Assembly (NCBI GenBank): GCA_944389505.1
Contig: CALXMP010000001.1
Coordinates: 310,001 to 374,000 of the forward strand
From: an uncultured Spirochaetaceae bacterium
GTDB lineage: Bacteria; Spirochaetota; Spirochaetia; Sphaerochaetales; Sphaerochaetaceae
Direction of reading: 5' to 3'
DNA: 64,000 nucleotides
Position 1 is the first letter of the stretch. Each line of letters starts with the position of its first letter. The notes under the pieces are model-generated. The model saw only the letters and a list, made by a program, of their open reading frames with translations, searched no databases and was not told the DNA's origin. The translations under genes were made by a program, and so were the position numbers. Below, piece after piece: positions 3,121 through 53,632 of the stretch.

Positions 3121-3895
3121 AAATGTCGCTTACGAGGATTATTTTGTACGTGCAACAGATACGGACATGTTCTACGATGCAACGATTCCTTTCTATTTCT
3201 CAGCTATCCAGGAAATGGGGGGAGAGCATGCATCGAAGCTTGGCATAGCTATCGATGATCTGCAGAGAGAGAAAGGCTGGACATGGGTTATTACAAGAAC
3301 GAGAGCCCTGTTCTATGGTTCATCGTCGTGGCGTGACACCCTGAATCTTGAGACATGGCCGCAGGAACCATACAGGCTTCATTGCCCCCGTGTCGTGAAT
3401 GGATACTGCAATGGCAGCAAGATTTTTGAAGCTATGACGCTCTGGGCAGTGATCGATATGAACAGGAAAAGACCAGTCAGGCCTCAGGAGGTCATGGGCA
3501 GCATACAGCCAGCACCCGCTGATAAGTATTTCGTCAATCCTGATATCGGGAAGATCATCAAATACGATGATGCCGAGAAGATCAAGGAGTACATGATATA
3601 CCGCCCTACTCCTGCTTACTATGATATCGACTACAACAAGCATGTGAACAATGTCGTATACCTCAGGTGGATAACAGAGGCTATGGATGAGGATATCCTG
3701 AAAACCTACAGGCCATCGATGCTCGATGTGCAGTGGGAGCATCAGACATTCAGCAATGACAAGATCTATGGCCAGACAGCGCTGACGGCAGAGACAGATG
3801 ATAAACTATCATTCGTCCACAGACTCATGAAAGAGGAGTATGGGAAGAACGACACAGTCCTCTTCGAAGCCTATTCAGAATGGGTCAGGAAATGA
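3104..3895 (+). CDS. Acyl-ACP thioesterase (double hotdog)
   Basis: 263 residues with two hotdog domains, the layout of the FatA/FatB-like bacterial acyl-ACP thioesterases that release free fatty acids from acyl carrier protein. The first domain has RATDTDMFYDATIPFYFSA and TWVITRTRALFYGSSSWRDT; the second has DIDYNKHVNNVVYLRW, where the Asn and His are the family's catalytic residues. The start at 3104 overlaps rsmD by 17 bases, with GGATGAGG just upstream; an ATG nine bases earlier is also possible. It is followed by a strong terminator, closing the operon. Confidence 0.88.
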   Translation: MRISSENVAYEDYFVRATDTDMFYDATIPFYFSAIQEMGGEHASKLGIAIDDLQREKGWTWVITRTRALFYGSSSWRDTLNLETWPQEPYRLHCPRVVNGYCNGSKIFEAMTLWAVIDMNRKRPVRPQEVMGSIQPAPADKYFVNPDIGKIIKYDDAEKIKEYMIYRPTPAYYDIDYNKHVNNVVYLRWITEAMDEDILKTYRPSMLDVQWEHQTFSNDKIYGQTALTAETDDKLSFVHRLMKEEYGKNDTVLFEAYSEWVRK

Positions 3896-5159: not shown

Positions 5160-6743
5160 ATGTATACGATACTCCTTGTTGAAGACGAAGAAGCTGTAAG
5201 ACACTCGATAAAAGACCTTACCCCATGGGAGGAATATGGTTTCTCTGTCATGGGAGAAGCATCAAATGGCATGGAAGCGCTTGAGATCATCTCAGAGACG
5301 ATGCCAGACGTCATCATCACGGATATCCGCATGCCATACATGGATGGCATACAGTTCATACAGGAAGTCAGGGAGAAGTATTCACAGACCGTTGAAGTCA
5401 TATTCCTTTCAGGATATGACGAATTCACATTCGCCCAGACTGCTCTCAGCCTTAAGGCTGCGGAATATGTTCTGAAGCCCGTCAGCATCGATTCAATGAG
5501 AGCCCTTCTTGGAAGAATACGTGCAAAGCTCGATGAGGACGTCGCCAGAGTATCTGACAGGACGAAGCTTGAAGCTTTCTACAGGGATGCATTCGATGTA
5601 TACAAAGAGAAATTCCTCGTCTCGCTCATAACCCCGACAAGAAAGAAGGATGAGACACTGATTGCGGAGAAAGCCAGCGAATACGGGGTTCCGCTGAAAG
5701 GGAATATCTTCGCAGTCTCGGTAATCGACCTTCCACTTGAGACGCTGTCATCGGTCGCAATGGAGGAGATCATTGAGGAGAGCACAGAGGACAGTGGCAA
5801 TATGCTGTCTTTCCAGTATGAGAATCAGATTGTGCTGATCTTCTCATCTGAGATGGGAAAGGATTTCGCGGCGCTCTTCATCAAGCAGATATACCGCTCT
5901 CTATCACTGCTCCAGTCCAGGCTTGTCCATTACTTCTCCCATCCATTCAGCATAGGAATCGGAGAGGTGGTCTTCCAGATAAGCTCACTGCCCCTTTCAT
6001 ACAGGAGCGCGATGGAGGCACTGAACTATACCCATATCTATCCGGAGCAGCATATCATATCGATAAGCGACGTCGAAAGCGTCAATGGCGCAAAGGATGA
6101 GAAAACAAGGAGCGATCTGAAGACGGAGCTTGTCATGGCCCTGAAATTCGGGACTGCGGAGGAGACAGAGGAGAAGATCCATGCTTTCTTCACAGGACTT
6201 GCCGAGACTGCGGATATCCAGAATGCAGTGCTCTCCATCCTCTCGATAATCTCCGAGATCTGTGCCTCATATGGAAGGAATATAGCACTGCTTCTCGAGG
6301 GAGAGGATCTCTTTCTCGAGCTCTCGCATGCAAACACCTCCGCAAGAGCTGAAGAGCTGGCAAAGCGCCTTGCGGTATCTGCCAATGAGATGGCATCGGG
6401 AGTAAGGGAAAACTCCCATATTCAGTTCGTGGAGAATGCAAAGCGGATCATAAAGGAACGCTACTCCGACTCGTCGTTCGGGCTTGATCAGGTTGCGGAT
6501 GAGATTTCCGTATCCCCTGCATATTTCTCTACGACATTCAAGAAGGAGACAGGACTGTCATTTGTGCAGTATCTTACGAACATCAGGCTGGAAAAGGCAA
6601 AGGAACTGCTGAAGAATACAGACAAGAAGACATATGAGATTGCAGAGGCAATAGGGTTCTCTGAGCCCAATTACTTCTCATTCACATTCAAGAAGAACAT
6701 AGGCATGTCACCTTCGCAGTTCAGAGCAGGGAACAGACAATAA
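5160..6743 (+). CDS. YesN-type response regulator (REC + AraC HTH)
   Basis: 527 residues. A CheY-like receiver occupies residues 1-125 with the acidic pair E8/D9, phospho-acceptor D55 in IITDIRMPYMDG and the Lys in AEYVLKPVS. A variable middle region (about 140-415) follows, and the last 100 residues are an AraC/XylS double helix-turn-helix (FGLDQVADEISVSPAYFSTTF and KTYEIAEAIGFSEPNYFSFTF). This is the usual design of YesN regulators of carbohydrate transport in Firmicutes and spirochaetes. Its stop and the kinase start share one base (TAATG), implying coupled translation. Confidence 0.93.
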   Translation: MYTILLVEDEEAVRHSIKDLTPWEEYGFSVMGEASNGMEALEIISETMPDVIITDIRMPYMDGIQFIQEVREKYSQTVEVIFLSGYDEFTFAQTALSLKAAEYVLKPVSIDSMRALLGRIRAKLDEDVARVSDRTKLEAFYRDAFDVYKEKFLVSLITPTRKKDETLIAEKASEYGVPLKGNIFAVSVIDLPLETLSSVAMEEIIEESTEDSGNMLSFQYENQIVLIFSSEMGKDFAALFIKQIYRSLSLLQSRLVHYFSHPFSIGIGEVVFQISSLPLSYRSAMEALNYTHIYPEQHIISISDVESVNGAKDEKTRSDLKTELVMALKFGTAEETEEKIHAFFTGLAETADIQNAVLSILSIISEICASYGRNIALLLEGEDLFLELSHANTSARAEELAKRLAVSANEMASGVRENSHIQFVENAKRIIKERYSDSSFGLDQVADEISVSPAYFSTTFKKETGLSFVQYLTNIRLEKAKELLKNTDKKTYEIAEAIGFSEPNYFSFTFKKNIGMSPSQFRAGNRQ

Positions 6744-8491
6744 TGAAGATGCGGGCAATATCCATCAGAACAACCATTTCCCTGCTGATGGCACTGATGC
6801 TTACAATACTGATCCTAGTTGTGAGCATCACAGTGAATGCATTCCTCACAAATGCGGTGACCGGAATAATGGTACGCAGTACTACAGAGGTCATAACCCA
6901 GGTCAACAACAACGCTGAGACATACATAGATGGCATTACTGGCATAGCCGCGTACGCCCGCAATCTGGCGCGCGATACATCGGCTCTGAATGCCGATGCC
7001 ATAACAGAAAGGCTTAAGGCAATAGTCTCATCCAGAAATGACATTGTCCGTATCGATGCCTTTGATCTGGAAGGGAATCCTCTGCTGACCACAGCCCCTT
7101 CAATCACTCCAGCGTCAAGGGACGAGCTCTGGTTCTCAAGGGCGGTGAAAGGCGAAGGCGATTTCTTCTTCACAGGCCCAAGGCTCCAGACACTTCCTTC
7201 GGGACAGACCGGCCTCGTGATAACATTCTCCCAGCTCATCAGCTATGGTGATATGAACAGAGCAACAAGCTCCGCAGTACTCTCCATAGACCTGAATTTC
7301 AATTCCATAAGGGAGCTGTCGGAGGATGCCAATCTTGCAGCCTCGGGTTACATTTACTTCATCTCCAATGATGGCGAGATAATATACCATCCGAACCAGC
7401 AGGAAATCGACAGCGGTGAATTTCTGGAAGATCTGGAAGGCGTTTCAGACCATGTATACGGTACATACATATCACAATTTGCAGGACACGAGCGCCTTAC
7501 AGTCATACAGACTGTGAACCAGACAAGATGGAGAATCGTCGGAGTCGCCATGATGGATGAGATCATGGATGATCTGGGGTCATTCCAGACGGCGCTTCTA
7601 TTCATCTCCGCTGTGATGATCATTATCTCCATAATAGCGACAACGATAATATCAAAGCACATCACAAGACCTCTCAGAAGACTGGAAAGCGAGATGAGGA
7701 AGGTAGAGACAGGTGATTTTAAGGTATCGCTACCGCAGAGTCACTCCATAGAGGTCGAATCGCTATCATCATCATTCAGGATCATGGTCGCAAGGATCAA
7801 GGTTCTCATGAAGAGGATAAAAGCGACGGAGGAGATAAAGAGGCAGAGAGAGCTCGACGCCCTTCAGGCAAAGATCAATCCTCACTTCCTCTACAACACG
7901 CTCGACAGCGTCATATGGATGGCGGAGACTGGAGACAATCACGGCGTTGTGAAGATGGTATCAGCCCTTGCACGTCTATTCAGGATATCAATAGCGAAAG
8001 GACATGATGTCATAACATTATCGGAAGAGCTGTTGCATGTGCAGAACTATCTCGATATCCAATCCATGAGATACAAAGACAAGTTCACCTACTCGATAAC
8101 CATCCCTCCAGAGCTTGAGAATGCACCAACGATAAAGCTCATAGTCCAGCCCATCGTTGAGAATTCAATCTACCATGGCATAAAGTACCTTCAGGAAGAA
8201 GGACGGATAGAGATTAAAGCCGAGGCCGTGGATGATGGAATAAAGATAATCATCTCCGATAACGGTGTGGGAATGAAGAGCGAGACTGCAGCCGCGATAC
8301 TGAATCCCGATCAGGAGAATACTGTATCATCAGGCAATGGTATCGGATTGAGGAATATCGATGAGCGGATCAAGCTGTCATATGGTGAGAAATACGGGCT
8401 CTCGATCTGGTCGGAGCCCGATGAAGGAACAACGGTGACGATACTGATTCCGCATCTGCCACCGATAGAGCCTATAATGGTGAAGCCCTGA
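6743..8491 (+). CDS. YesM-type sensor histidine kinase
   Basis: 582 residues. TM1 (about residues 10-32), an extracytoplasmic Cache-like sensor (about 35-285, with FSRAVKGEGDFFFTGP), TM2 (about 288-310), HAMP, then a His_kinase module with phospho-acceptor H381 in INPHFLYNTLDSVIWM and an ATPase domain with N-box IVQPIVENSIYHGIKY, DNGVGM and GNGIGLRNIDERI. It pairs with the receiver gene before it. It ends four bases from the convergent DUF4867 gene of the mgl operon, so a sugar-related signal is plausible but not shown. Confidence 0.93.
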   Translation: MKMRAISIRTTISLLMALMLTILILVVSITVNAFLTNAVTGIMVRSTTEVITQVNNNAETYIDGITGIAAYARNLARDTSALNADAITERLKAIVSSRNDIVRIDAFDLEGNPLLTTAPSITPASRDELWFSRAVKGEGDFFFTGPRLQTLPSGQTGLVITFSQLISYGDMNRATSSAVLSIDLNFNSIRELSEDANLAASGYIYFISNDGEIIYHPNQQEIDSGEFLEDLEGVSDHVYGTYISQFAGHERLTVIQTVNQTRWRIVGVAMMDEIMDDLGSFQTALLFISAVMIIISIIATTIISKHITRPLRRLESEMRKVETGDFKVSLPQSHSIEVESLSSSFRIMVARIKVLMKRIKATEEIKRQRELDALQAKINPHFLYNTLDSVIWMAETGDNHGVVKMVSALARLFRISIAKGHDVITLSEELLHVQNYLDIQSMRYKDKFTYSITIPPELENAPTIKLIVQPIVENSIYHGIKYLQEEGRIEIKAEAVDDGIKIIISDNGVGMKSETAAAILNPDQENTVSSGNGIGLRNIDERIKLSYGEKYGLSIWSEPDEGTTVTILIPHLPPIEPIMVKP

Positions 8492-46772: not shown

Positions 46773-46804
46773 AAAGGGCCTGACGTGAAAATCAGGTCCT
46801 TTTT
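46773..46804 (+). terminator. Terminator of leuS
   Basis: AAAGGGCCTGA pairs with TCAGGTCCTTT (one G-T) over an eight-base loop and continues into TTTT. Confidence 0.88.
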
Positions 46805-46843
46805 CATTCAGGTTGCACTAAATTATATGTTTCTTAATCTATC

Positions 46844-46950: not shown

Positions 46951-46980
46951 GTTGATGATCATCAACCCTTGATATATACT
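46951..46980 (+). promoter_or_regulatory. dprA-like promoter with perfect 16-bp palindrome over the -35
   Basis: TTGATG (46952-46957), exactly 17 bases, TATACT (46975-46980), then six bases to ATG. GTTGATGATCATCAAC (46951-46966) is a perfect palindrome covering the -35 box, so a bound dimer would block the promoter. The HTH domain of the encoded protein is the obvious candidate. Confidence 0.7.
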
Positions 46981-46986
46981 CTATAT

Positions 46987-48201
46987 ATGGATATTGAGCC
47001 TAAGGATTTGTTCTTTTCTAAGGAGGCTGCGGATTTTCTTGGAATCTCTGTTCAGCGTCTGAATAAACTTACTAAGGATAACACTATAAAACCTTTTAAG
47101 AAAAACAGTTCAGGTACTGTTTATCTACTTCAGGAATTACAGAAAAGAAAGGATGAATTGGCAATATTCAAAGGAAAGAAACCTATATCTTATCAAGGAG
47201 CAGAAGGCATGTTCAGAATCAATACACCAATCCGCCAAGAGGCCCTTAATTTCTCAACCCTTATGCTCTCATTGGATATAACTGAAAAGAAACTCACCCC
47301 TATTTTTGATAATCTTTCACATTCATTGGATATCTCATCTGCGATAACAGATGACTTAATAGGATGGAGTACCGCGTTTAATATCGATGAATCAATACTG
47401 CTATCGAACTATGAAACTGCAAAACAGGAATTCTGCAGATTGCACGAGACTGATGAAATCATAAAGATTGGGGATACGGAATATCCCACCCTTCTTTCTG
47501 AAACAGAGGAGGCTCCTCGCTTCCTGTATCTCAGGGGAGATTTTTCCCTTCTTCATGACACTAGGACTATTGCCCTTGTTGGAAGTAGGAATGCCTCTGA
47601 TAAAGGCAAGGAGAATACACGAAGAGTTGCTGCAACACTTGGACACAATGGAATCATTGTTGTCTCTGGACTTGCAAGAGGAATAGATGTAACTGCACAT
47701 AAAACTGCTTTGGAAAACGGATACAAGACAATTGCTGTCATAGGAACAAATCTCAACCAATACTATCCAAGTGAAAACAAGAATATTCAGATGGAAATCG
47801 AGAAGAAAGGCCTTGTAATCTCACAATTTTCACCTGCGCTTAAAACAGAACGGTGGTTCTTTCCTCTTCGCAATGGTGTCATGAGCGGTCTATCAAGAGC
47901 AACCGTAATCATGGAAGCAGGAGAAACATCCGGAGCTCTTACTCAAGCCAAGTATGCTGCAAAACAGGGCCGTCTTGTCCTGATTCCCCAGAATGTATTC
48001 TCTGATCCATCGATATCCTGGCCTCACAGTCTTGTCAGGAAAGGAGCTATTGTGGTCAGAACTCCGAAGGAAATAATCAGCACTTTATCAGAGAGGCTGT
48101 CATCCACGGGCAATGAAAGAATGGCTACTCCTGATCTCTTTGCTGATGATATCAATAGCGGAATGTTTATCGCAGAGGAAGCGGAATACAGTGCTGACTG
48201 A
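46987..48201 (+). CDS. HTH-domain DprA/Smf-like (SLOG) protein
   Basis: 404 residues. Residues about 8-60 form a MerR/excisionase-type HTH (FFSKEAADFLGISVQRLNKL... GTVYLLQELQKRK) that ordinary DprA lacks. Residues about 155-370 are the DprA Rossmann/SLOG domain: YPTLLSETEEAPRFLYLRGD, IALVGSRNAS, VVSGLARGIDVTAHKTAL, TIAVIGTNLNQYYPSENK, SGLSRATVIMEAGETSGALTQA. Codon use and base content are clearly AT-richer than neighbours, suggesting transfer. The ATG at 46987 is fixed by the promoter six bases upstream. Possible autorepressor of this unit; partner is the downstream phosphoribosyltransferase gene. Confidence 0.85.
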   Translation: MDIEPKDLFFSKEAADFLGISVQRLNKLTKDNTIKPFKKNSSGTVYLLQELQKRKDELAIFKGKKPISYQGAEGMFRINTPIRQEALNFSTLMLSLDITEKKLTPIFDNLSHSLDISSAITDDLIGWSTAFNIDESILLSNYETAKQEFCRLHETDEIIKIGDTEYPTLLSETEEAPRFLYLRGDFSLLHDTRTIALVGSRNASDKGKENTRRVAATLGHNGIIVVSGLARGIDVTAHKTALENGYKTIAVIGTNLNQYYPSENKNIQMEIEKKGLVISQFSPALKTERWFFPLRNGVMSGLSRATVIMEAGETSGALTQAKYAAKQGRLVLIPQNVFSDPSISWPHSLVRKGAIVVRTPKEIISTLSERLSSTGNERMATPDLFADDINSGMFIAEEAEYSAD

Positions 48202-49069
48202 CATCGCAAGACTCAAAATCTTTGTGATTTATTTTGAAACCCGCATTCTCGACGATAAAGAAAAGGGTTCTCTGGAGAATCTCGCTGCAGGAAGAATCTG
48301 CTATCTAGTAGGTTCTGCAGAGAACAACATAGACAATAATAGCCCTGTCTATAAAGTAATTCCCTGGGATTTCCAATTGCCCAATTCAGCTTTCCTTTCA
48401 GCAATAATGAATAATGAGAATGCAAGATCAGAAGAGATAGCATACATTTCAGATAATCTTCTATTCTTAAACAATGCCAGAGAACTGATGGGATACACTG
48501 TCTATATTGCACCTAAAGGAATCCCAGAATACAAACTTATCGCGGGGACTTGTCCAGATATGATCTGTTCCTCTCTGAGCAACCTTCTGGCATGTTTTTC
48601 AGCTGAAAGAATTGGATTCAAAGGGGAGTCTTCTTTCTATTGCAATTCCGCAATCTCACCAGGAATATTCTATCGGCTTGCATATGAAAACAGGAATTCT
48701 CCATTTGAGATATGTTTTGCTGGCCGATACTTTGGAACAAAGCATTTCTTAGGTTCTATTGATAGATACTCACAGGCGATCCGAGATAACAAAACCGAAA
48801 AAAGCAAATGCTACAGGAAATTCGATTCAAAATTTAAGAATCTTTATTTCCAGATGATTTCCTCTTACCAGAAGCAATTCGGAATATGCATCAGCTCAAT
48901 CGCGAATGTTCCTGATAAGCCATCCAAGAAACCTAGATTCTCAGAAATCACCAACTTATTAAGTCTTGAACTCGGAATGAGAAATATTTCATCGGATTTC
49001 ATTTGTCAGAAAGATATCAAGGATAATAAATCTCTCTCCTCTGCAGACAGGCAGAAGAATATTGCTTGA
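48191..49069 (+). CDS. HAD-like / phosphoribosyltransferase fusion, 5' part, interrupted by TGA
   Basis: 292 codons from GTG at 48191 (GAGGAAG upstream), overlapping the dprA-like gene by 11 bases. Residues about 8-135 have an arrangement reminiscent of a degenerate HAD domain (KIFVIYFETRILDD for motif I and YISDNLLFLNNARELMGYTVYIAPKG for the last motif), with the catalytic Asp apparently lost. Residues about 195-290 resemble the first half of a ComF-type phosphoribosyltransferase. Translation stops at TGA 49067-49069, before the PRPP-binding loop, although the same frame continues with that loop. AT-rich like its partner. Domain naming is tentative. Confidence 0.55.
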   Translation: MLTDIARLKIFVIYFETRILDDKEKGSLENLAAGRICYLVGSAENNIDNNSPVYKVIPWDFQLPNSAFLSAIMNNENARSEEIAYISDNLLFLNNARELMGYTVYIAPKGIPEYKLIAGTCPDMICSSLSNLLACFSAERIGFKGESSFYCNSAISPGIFYRLAYENRNSPFEICFAGRYFGTKHFLGSIDRYSQAIRDNKTEKSKCYRKFDSKFKNLYFQMISSYQKQFGICISSIANVPDKPSKKPRFSEITNLLSLELGMRNISSDFICQKDIKDNKSLSSADRQKNIA

Positions 49070-49432
49070 TCCTTTTCTTATAATGGGCCGTCTCTGAAAG
49101 GACAAACTATTGCAATCATCGATGATATAGCAACAACAGGAAGTACCCTTTCTGCCTGCGTTGATGAGTTATTAAGAAATGGTGCTGATAGGATAATCTG
49201 TTTTGTGCTTGCTATAAATCAAATCCCATGCAATTTCTGCAAACAAGAAAGCTTTGATACCTTCAAGCAGGAATATCATTTACATTTCAACTCATCTGAC
49301 CTCACTCCGTTCTTCAGCTCTAAGAAAGGTACTTTGAATTATGATAAGACAATTGAAATCCTTCTGAATAATATAAACAGCTATCCAATTAACCATGAAA
49401 TAGCAAATGATCTGGAGAATATACCTTTCTGA
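49070..49432 (+). pseudogene. 3' part of the phosphoribosyltransferase, in frame beyond a TGA
   Basis: Directly after TGA 49067-49069 and in the same frame come about 120 codons with SFSYNGPSLKGQTIAIIDD and DIATTGSTLSACVDELLRNG, the PRPP-binding DD-x3-TG motif of type I phosphoribosyltransferases such as ComFC. Aligned to ComFC from memory, the stop falls at the Gly of N-x-K-G-A-F, so a GGA to TGA change is the simplest account. No in-frame start with a ribosome site exists here. Either the gene is recently broken or the stop is read through. Confidence 0.75.
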
Positions 49433-49472: not shown

Positions 49473-49796
49473 GGATCACATCTCATGGATCCTCGCAAGC
49501 CCTACCATCGCCATAAGAGCATATGAAGCATGGTCGATTGCCCTCATAGCAGCCATCGCATTGCGCTCGATACATGGAATCTGGACCAGTCCCATAAGGG
49601 GATCGCAGGTGAGCCCAAGATGATGCTCAAGCCCCATTTCCGCAGCATACTCTATCTGGTATATCGAGCCTCCAAGAAGCTGTGCACAAGCCGCTCCTGC
49701 CATAGCGCAAGCGACACCTACCTCTCCCTGGCATCCAACATCCGCCCCTGATATAGACCCGTTCTCCTTCACAATATTGCTGACAAGACCTGCAGT
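49473..49796 (-). pseudogene. Truncated duplicate of the sdaA 3' end
   Basis: This 324-base block matches 52427-52840, the 3' part of intact sdaA on the same strand, with only a few base changes (for example ATACATGG against ATGCATGG). It lacks a 90-base, 30-codon stretch, so the copy reads ...[17 protein letters not shown]. Upstream it diverges abruptly after the LTAGLV codons. It retains the cluster-ligand segments VGCQGE and CDPLMG but not the catalytic N-terminal half; it is a remnant, not a functional enzyme. Confidence 0.9.
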
Positions 49797-49816
49797 AAGT
49801 CCACGATGAATCATAC

Positions 49817-52426: not shown

Positions 52427-52840
52427 GGATCACATCTCATGGATCCTAGCAAGCCCTCCCATCGATGTCTCTCTGTAAAGGGATGGAAGCGCATGACCTG
52501 TCTCCATCATAACCTCGACAACGTCATCAAAGGATATCTTATGCCTCCCATCGCCCATAAGAGCATATGAAGCATGGTCGATTGCCCTCATAGCAGCCAT
52601 CGCATTGCGCTCGATGCATGGAATCTGGACCAGTCCCATAAGGGGATCGCAGGTGAGCCCAAGATGATGCTCAAGCCCCATTTCCGCAGCATACTCTATC
52701 TGGTATATCGAGCCTCCAAGAAGCTGTGCACAAGCCGCTCCTGCCATAGCGCAAGCGACACCTACCTCTCCCTGGCATCCAACATCCGCCCCTGATATAG
52801 ACCCGTTCTCCTTCACAATATTGCCGACAAGACCTGCAGT
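52427..52840. repeat. Donor copy of the sdaA 3'-end direct repeat
   Basis: The 414-base intact counterpart of the remnant at 49473-49796, in the same orientation. Both copies begin at GGATCACATCTCATGG, just outside the stop codon, and end at GACCTGCAGT. Within this copy CCTCCCATCG occurs twice, 90 bases apart, bracketing the part missing from the remnant. Confidence 0.88.
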
Positions 52841-53632
52841 CAGGAGAGCCCGGAGCACTCTTACTTCAGGAATATTGTACTCCCTGGATATATGATAAAG
52901 AGCTCCTGGCAGGACTCCAGCGCTTCCGCAGGTGGGTGCTGTGACGATCTTGCCGCCGCCGGCATTCTCCTCCGATACGGCAAGTGCGTATGCAAAGCCA
53001 TGGGCTGTGTTTCCCATTGTCCCAGAGAAATCACGGGCCTTGGCATATGCCTGGCATGCTTTTCTCTGAAGATGCAGACCTCCCGGAAGAACCCCTTCTG
53101 CCTCAAGTCCTCGTTTTATAGCATCCTTCATGACAGTCCAGACATCGAAGACATAATCGAGAATCTCCTCTCCTTCTGCCTCTACCGCTACTTCCCATAT
53201 CTGGTATCCGGTCTCATCACAGTAGGAAAGAAGCTTGCGCATGGTTCCGACCTTACTGTTATCATATACATCCTTGTCCTCTGTGCTTTCGCCCTCGTGT
53301 ACAACCTTTCCGCCTCCGACTGAATAGTAGGTCTCGGAAGCATTGCCAGGCTCAAGTTCGATAAGCGTAAGAGCATTCGGATGAAAAGGCTTGAAGGTAT
53401 CTGGAAACCACAGTATCTCGATATCAGAACCATGCTCCTTGAATACCTCACGGAGAGCTCTGTCCGTCAGATGGCCTTTGCCGGTCGCCGCAAGAGAGCC
53501 ATAAAGCTCTGCTCTGACCTTCTTTGCCTCAGGATGGCTCTCAAGGAACATGCCTGCTGCATTCCTGGGACCCATTGTGTGCGAAGACGATGGACCATAT
53601 CCAATACGATAGAGTTCTCTCAGTGATTCCAT
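52430..53632 (-). CDS. sdaA: L-serine ammonia-lyase (iron-sulfur, single chain)
   Basis: 400 residues. The beta domain with YGPSSSHTMGPRNAAGMF leads, followed by the alpha domain with [40 protein letters not shown] and [20 protein letters not shown], whose cysteines bind the [4Fe-4S] cluster. It converts L-serine to pyruvate and ammonia, feeding PFOR. The ATG at 53632 has no Shine-Dalgarno; a TTGAGC-17-TAGACT promoter ends nine bases before it, so the leader is at most two or three bases. Confidence 0.95.
   Translation of the reverse strand: MESLRELYRIGYGPSSSHTMGPRNAAGMFLESHPEAKKVRAELYGSLAATGKGHLTDRALREVFKEHGSDIEILWFPDTFKPFHPNALTLIELEPGNASETYYSVGGGKVVHEGESTEDKDVYDNSKVGTMRKLLSYCDETGYQIWEVAVEAEGEEILDYVFDVWTVMKDAIKRGLEAEGVLPGGLHLQRKACQAYAKARDFSGTMGNTAHGFAYALAVSEENAGGGKIVTAPTCGSAGVLPGALYHISREYNIPEVRVLRALLTAGLVGNIVKENGSISGADVGCQGEVGVACAMAGAACAQLLGGSIYQIEYAAEMGLEHHLGLTCDPLMGLVQIPCIERNAMAAMRAIDHASYALMGDGRHKISFDDVVEVMMETGHALPSLYRETSMGGLARIHEM

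What the first reader, a model, noticed from the sequence alone, without database searches (positions are those of the whole stretch)
46951..49432. AT-rich cassette of HTH-DprA plus HAD-like/phosphoribosyltransferase
A DprA/SLOG protein with an extra N-terminal HTH is followed, overlapping by 11 bases, by a two-domain gene that seems to be a degenerate HAD fused to a ComF-type phosphoribosyltransferase. The pair is visibly AT-richer than its surroundings and has its own promoter and operator. SLOG proteins bind nucleotides or DNA and are frequent in conflict systems; I recall DprA-phosphoribosyltransferase pairs being noted in comparative genomics but know no experimental description. The system could be a regulated anti-mobile-DNA or nucleotide-signalling module.
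Basis: partly seen in the sequence, partly recalled or inferred. Interest (0 to 1): 0.8.

Follow-up and report, generated by a model that had tools for sequence, protein, structure and literature searches.

The report
Broken ShosTA-type toxin–antitoxin pair
This two-gene cassette in an uncultured spirochaete is a member of the known anti-phage toxin–antitoxin family ShosTA, in a version whose antitoxin carries an extra DNA-binding domain next to a conserved operator, and in this genome a stop codon cuts the toxin gene before its active site.

Summary
The pair is real, but the second gene is not one open frame. An in-frame TGA at 49067-49069 cuts it just before the PRPP loop. The first gene is a DprA-fold protein that matches ShosA. 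A fold of the second gene, with the stop read through, has solved ShosT structures as its top three PDB hits (HAD-like N-domain plus phosphoribosyltransferase). It is therefore a ShosTA-type toxin-antitoxin pair, not competence dprA/comF; a separate, divergent dprA lies elsewhere in the genome.

The pair is patchy (10 of 48 genomes of the genus). It is absent from a near-identical relative with matching flanks, and also occurs in a sister genus, Butyrivibrio, a prophage and Geobacillus phage phiOH2. Two things go beyond the family as I found it described. (1) The antitoxin has an added N-terminal winged HTH, and a palindromic operator over the -35 box of an apparently leaderless promoter accompanies it. 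The operator is unique in this 2.1 Mb genome and absent upstream of 50 phage loci not matched over the HTH. (2) The toxin is disrupted in 7 of 17 loci, in different ways, and the antitoxin in none. Most likely the window holds an autoregulated antitoxin left beside a dead toxin. No toxicity or defence was measured.

The parts
46774..46804 (+). terminator-like hairpin of the upstream leuS gene; left edge of the variable segment (homology with G019 ends at 46812)
   Evidence: sequence; comparison with L116
46951..46966 (.). perfect 16-bp palindrome GTTGATGATCATCAAC, the putative operator (consensus TTGAYRATNNTMAAYNC at 46952-46968)
   Evidence: (only match in the genome)
46952..46980 (+). putative promoter: -35 TTGATG (46952-46957), 17-bp spacer, -10 TATACT (46975-46980); predicted start of transcription at or next to the ATG, i.e. 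leaderless
   Evidence: inference from spacing in the Spirochaete members
46987..48201 (+). antitoxin: ShosA-type DprA protein (404 aa): N-terminal winged HTH (about residues 1-58), helical linker domain, DprA Rossmann fold (residues 79-362 superpose on ShosA 8zva)
48191..49069 (+). toxin gene, 5' part (GTG start, 292 codons, ends at TGA): HAD-like domain plus the first part of the PRT fold
49070..49432 (+). toxin gene, 3' part after the in-frame TGA: PRPP loop IIDDIATTGSTL and the end of the PRT fold; not expected to be translated
   Evidence: (ShosT profile 3e-10)
49473..49799 (-). decayed partial copy of the 3' part of sdaA (52430-53632), a recombination scar at the right edge of the cassette
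   Evidence: 99% over 297 bp, plus 36/38 bp

Best explanation
The cassette is a ShosTA-type toxin-antitoxin/anti-phage module of an HTH-bearing subtype, acquired as a mobile cassette, whose toxin has been inactivated in this genome. Shown here: family membership by sequence and fold; pairing and gene order; patchy occurrence; the disrupted toxin frame; co-occurrence of HTH and operator. Inferred: (1) the N-terminal winged HTH of the antitoxin binds the palindrome over the -35 box and represses its own leaderless operon; (2) in relatives with an intact toxin, the HAD-PRT protein would use PRPP and disturb nucleotide metabolism as reported for ShosT, and the DprA-like antitoxin restrains it until a phage upsets the cell; (3) in the window the toxin ends before the PRPP loop, so it should be non-toxic, and what remains is a self-regulating DprA-like antitoxin.
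For: PADLOC: ShosA 240 bits for the antitoxin; ShosT 38 bits for the toxin C-part and 34-38 bits in intact relatives. The fold of the read-through toxin has 8zvc, 8zvd and 8zvb (all ShosT) as top three PDB matches, E 5e-10 to 2e-9; domain by domain, ComF 7p0h Z 15.4 and ShosT 8zvc Z 13.5 over residues about 150-345, HAD phosphatases Z about 12-13 over 3-141. The antitoxin model superposes on ShosA 8zva with Z 25.9 over residues 79-362, so the first ~60 residues are an addition; ShosA entries 9vzo and 8zva also match by sequence. Pair and order are conserved in the genus, sister genus, Butyrivibrio, a prophage and phage phiOH2. Operator pattern: one match in 2.1 Mb, here; 0 mismatches in all 10 members of the genus and, outside the set it was drawn from, 0 in Butyrivibrio, G205, G363 and G223, 1 in G211, G367 and phiOH2, 2 in the L112 prophage; none of 50 phage loci that the search did not match over the HTH has it within 2 mismatches. 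Toxin disrupted in 7 of 17 loci (2 nonsense, 3 frameshift, 1 IS200/IS605, 1 repeated element), antitoxin 0 of 17, Fisher p 0.007. dN/dS of close pairs: antitoxin 0.05-0.10, toxin 0.23-0.53.
Against: No toxicity, neutralisation, DNA binding or defence was measured. Sequence identity of the toxin to solved ShosT is about 13%, the whole-chain Foldseek TM-scores are low (0.30-0.35) and rmsd high, probably from domain placement. The toxin model rests on a 6-sequence alignment (pLDDT 77). PADLOC PsyrT scores about as well as ShosT for some relatives, though the RecQ helicase part of PsyrT/RqlH is absent. The TGA could be an assembly error or a strain-level variant: only one genome of this species is held. 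The toxins compared for dN/dS include disrupted copies, so part of their higher ratio may be decay.
Confidence: 0.85

Rival explanations
1. Housekeeping competence genes: dprA and comF of this lineage, used for natural transformation.
For: TIGR00732 dprA passes its cut-off (197 bits) and the toxin C-part is ComF-like (7p0h Z 15.4).
Against: A second, divergent dprA is in this genome and in nearly all congeners; the cassette is patchy and sits at different chromosomal places; the partner has an added HAD-like domain and matches ShosT best; the same pair is on phages.
Confidence: 0.04
2. The toxin is intact in effect: the TGA is an assembly error, a rare variant, or is read through.
For: Only one genome is held; the frame continues after the TGA with the PRPP loop and still aligns with relatives.
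Against: Six further loci carry independent disruptions of other kinds, including transposon insertion. TGA ends other genes here, so the code is standard.
Confidence: 0.15
3. The lone antitoxin is kept because it protects against ShosTA-type toxins on incoming phages (an anti-addiction or anti-toxin guard), not as a remnant.
For: Antitoxin frames intact in 17 of 17 while toxins are disrupted in 7 of 17; low antitoxin dN/dS even in pairs with a disrupted toxin (0.05-0.10); same subtype on phages; G393 holds a toxin-less ShosA homologue followed directly by alaS, on a short contig.
Against: Toxin loss may be so recent that the antitoxin has had no time to decay; the window lineage cannot be tested because dS to G025 is saturated.
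Confidence: 0.2
4. A member of the PsyrTA/RqlHI branch rather than ShosTA.
For: PsyrT profile matches several toxins over the PRT part at similar or better E-values.
Against: No RecQ helicase domain; full-length architecture HAD-PRT is that of solved ShosT; RqlI has its HTH at the C-terminus (PMC4670107), here it is N-terminal.
Confidence: 0.08

Closest known systems
ShosTA (E. coli; PDB 8zva-8zvd; Rousset et al. 2022 for the phage-borne DprA-PRT system; Pu et al. 2025 as summarised in PMC12593503)
   Same: DprA-like antitoxin beside a HAD-like plus PRT toxin; same folds; carried by phages and other mobile DNA; antitoxin gene first in phage Mana and in E. coli plasmid B, as here
   Different: antitoxin here has about 60 extra N-terminal residues forming a winged HTH and a conserved operator; toxin about 13% identical to solved ShosT; toxin disrupted in this genome
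RqlHI / PsyrTA
   Same: PRT domain as the toxic part, DprA-like antitoxin; RqlI also has an HTH
   Different: toxin is fused to a RecQ helicase; RqlI's HTH is at the C-terminus and is dispensable for neutralisation (PMC4670107)
DprA/Smf of natural transformation
   Same: same Rossmann/SLOG fold (3uqz, 3maj, Z about 27)
   Different: separate divergent gene in this genome; the cassette protein has an added HTH and a toxin partner
Geobacillus phage phiOH2 gp32-gp31
   Same: HTH-DprA (42% identity over 90%) followed by HAD-PRT, with palindrome TTGATAATTATCAA upstream
   Different: phage-borne, toxin frame intact, has a ribosome-binding site; annotated only as DprA and amidophosphoribosyltransferase

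Membership tests
ShosTA toxin-antitoxin | DprA-family antitoxin matching ShosA | tested here: met
   PADLOC ShosA 240 bits; 8zva Z 25.9, 9vzo/8zva by sequence
ShosTA toxin-antitoxin | adjacent toxin with HAD-like N-domain and PRT C-domain as in solved ShosT | tested here: met
   Foldseek top three 8zvc/8zvd/8zvb; domain matches; whole-chain superposition poor
ShosTA toxin-antitoxin | intact PRPP loop in the translated toxin (a requirement for an active system, not for descent from the family) | tested here: not met
   window copy stops at 49067-49069 before IIDDIATTG; frame intact in 10 relatives. Hence filed as an inactivated copy of the family
ShosTA toxin-antitoxin | toxicity of the toxin and neutralisation by the antitoxin | not testable with these tools
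   needs expression; independent toxin disruptions with intact antitoxins are indirect support
ShosTA toxin-antitoxin | protection against phage | not testable with these tools
   indirect: the same subtype on phages
PsyrTA / RqlHI | RecQ-type helicase fused to the PRT toxin | tested here: not met
   no helicase domain in the toxin or next to it
competence dprA/comF | the genome's only dprA, conserved in the lineage | tested here: not met
   second dprA at G000:C3; cassette in 10 of 48 congeners

The most novel reading that the evidence does not exclude
HTH-ShosA is a stand-alone guard: a DprA-like protein that represses its own leaderless operon through a palindrome, is kept after toxin loss, and neutralises or silences ShosTA-type toxins brought in by phages.
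Probability: 0.2. Interest if true: 0.6.

Novelty: new variant of a known kind. Interest (0 to 1): 0.42.

Why it matters
ShosTA was characterised in E. coli with an antitoxin that lacks this N-terminal HTH. A subtype in which the DprA-like antitoxin also looks like its own repressor, with an operator conserved from Spirochaetota to a Geobacillus phage, gives a directly testable link between sensing, transcription and neutralisation. The repeated, independent disruption of the toxin beside an intact antitoxin is natural genetic evidence of toxin cost, and raises the question of what lone antitoxins do.

Tried and rejected
Recoding of TGA: rejected, TGA is a normal stop in neighbouring genes, and the aligned column is variable. 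Housekeeping dprA/comF: rejected. Toxin homologues on plasmids: none found, although more distant DprA relatives are frequent there. Only one toxin relative beyond this genus with near full-length similarity came up among genome contigs (Butyrivibrio VCD2006, L033); among the 80 kept hits only it and the G010 record had a matching DprA neighbour, and the rest match the PRT part only. Trees of antitoxin and toxin agree on the supported window+G025+G007 group but are too weakly resolved for statements on transfer. Pfam gives no domain for the toxin N-part by sequence; only the fold shows it. The primary ShosTA mechanism paper (Pu et al. 2025) is not held, so its content is cited from a review.

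Full report
What is there. The segment is AT-rich, about 40% GC against about 48% around it. The first gene runs from ATG 46987 to 48201. The second begins at GTG 48191, overlaps the first by 11 bases, and is stopped by TGA at 49067-49069; the same frame then stays open to 49432. TGA also ends the first gene and the toxin frame itself, so the code is the standard one.

Identity. The first protein matches PADLOC ShosA at 240 bits and Pfam DprA at 217 bits. Its predicted structure superposes on ShosA of E. coli (8zva, Z 25.9, residues 79-362) as well as on competence DprA (Z about 27). The second protein, with the stop read through and aligned with five intact relatives, was folded (pLDDT 77). 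The three best PDB matches are all ShosT (8zvc, 8zvd, 8zvb; E 5e-10 to 2e-9). Domain by domain it is a HAD-like fold (residues 3-141, Z 12-13) followed by a ComF/ShosT-like PRT fold (residues about 150-345, Z 13.5-15.4). Whole-chain superposition is poor (TM about 0.3), which I take to be domain placement in the model.

Not competence genes. The genome has another, divergent dprA on contig C3 (69 bits), as do nearly all congeners. The cassette is in 10 of 48 genomes of the genus; among 395 genomes sampled from the class it was also found in 5 of a sister genus and, as a more distant homologue, in 1 further genome of the family. It sits at several chromosomal places. A relative with 99% identical flanking proteins (G019) has no cassette at this site but a 1.1-kb segment with a lipoprotein-like gene. 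The pair also occurs in Butyrivibrio sp. VCD2006, where a second ShosT-like gene lies upstream, in a prophage beside amidase and baseplate genes (L112), and in Geobacillus phage phiOH2 as gp32-gp31.

A subtype with its own repressor domain. Compared with E. coli ShosA the antitoxin has about 60 extra N-terminal residues, predicted as a winged HTH and scored as HTH_17 above cut-off in G025, Butyrivibrio and L112. All ten members of the genus have the sequence TTGAYRATNNTMAAYNC 18-20 bases before the ATG, part of a palindrome laid over the -35 box. In this genome the pattern occurs once in 2.1 Mb, at this place. Outside the set it was drawn from, it is matched exactly in Butyrivibrio, G205, G363 and G223, with one mismatch in G211, G367 and phiOH2 (palindrome TTGATAATTATCAA), and with two in the L112 prophage. 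Of 52 phage-borne DprA loci tested, the 50 that the search did not match over the HTH region have no copy within two mismatches in the 120 bases upstream. In that script the start codon called for L150 (the phiOH2 record) lay too far upstream, so its own site was missed there; with the annotated start it has one mismatch. The same kind of start-codon error could hide sites in the controls, and some controls are near-duplicates. In the window, -35 TTGATG, a 17-base spacer and -10 TATACT put the start of transcription at about 46987, the ATG itself, so the message is probably leaderless; that step is inference, as is repression by the HTH.

Toxin loss. Among 17 loci with enough sequence, the toxin is intact in 10 (G025, G007, G012, G034, G010, G363, G211, G223, Butyrivibrio, L112). 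It is disrupted in 7: nonsense in the window and G026; frameshift in G021, G024 and G205; an IS200/IS605 element in G367; and an element with three copies in the genome in G020, where the contig ends. The antitoxin frame is open in all 17; Fisher p is 0.007 counting loci, which ignores relatedness, though the lesions differ. For close pairs dN/dS is 0.05-0.10 for the antitoxin and 0.23-0.53 for the toxin; some of those toxins are disrupted, so decay contributes. In the window the translated toxin lacks the PRPP loop and should be inactive.

How it works, most likely. In intact members, HTH-ShosA keeps its operon low and holds ShosT in check. ShosT is reported to act on nucleotide metabolism as a PRT/pyrophosphatase and to cause DNA damage, with a T7 protein as one trigger (Pu et al. 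2025, known to me here only through the review PMC12593503). Rousset et al. 2022 (PMC9122126) showed phage protection by a P2-borne DprA-PRT pair, and Russell & Mulvey 2015 (PMC4670107) showed PRT-dependent toxicity and DprA-like neutralisation for RqlHI. None of this was tested for the spirochaete proteins.

Verdict. A new variant of a known kind: an HTH-bearing ShosTA subtype, here with a dead toxin. Literature coverage was limited, so the claim that the HTH subtype and operator are undescribed rests on not finding them in the papers searched.

Noticed in passing
window 49473-49799 and 52427-52840: A decayed partial copy of the 3' part of sdaA (99% over 297 bp, with an internal deletion between short repeats) lies at the right edge of the cassette, in the same orientation as the full gene: a recombination scar. 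In several congeners leuS is followed directly by sdaA, without the UvrA-like gene.
   Followed up: partly
L116 (G019:C83) about 6041-7161: The same site, downstream of leuS, holds a lipoprotein-like repeat gene in place of the cassette in a near-identical relative: a variable site.
   Followed up: partly
L033:3245-4468 (Butyrivibrio sp. VCD2006): A second ShosT-like protein (PADLOC ShosT 105 bits) lies upstream of the HTH-ShosA/ShosT pair; a copy of the operator pattern at 3216 lies just before it: possibly two toxins under one antitoxin.
   Followed up: partly
L002 (G000:C3:144701-145579): The other dprA of this genome is strongly divergent and lacks the GSR and SGLARGID motifs that the cassette DprA keeps.
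   Followed up: no
L145 (G393): A ShosA homologue without the HTH and without a toxin stands alone directly upstream of alaS, on a short contig.
   Followed up: no
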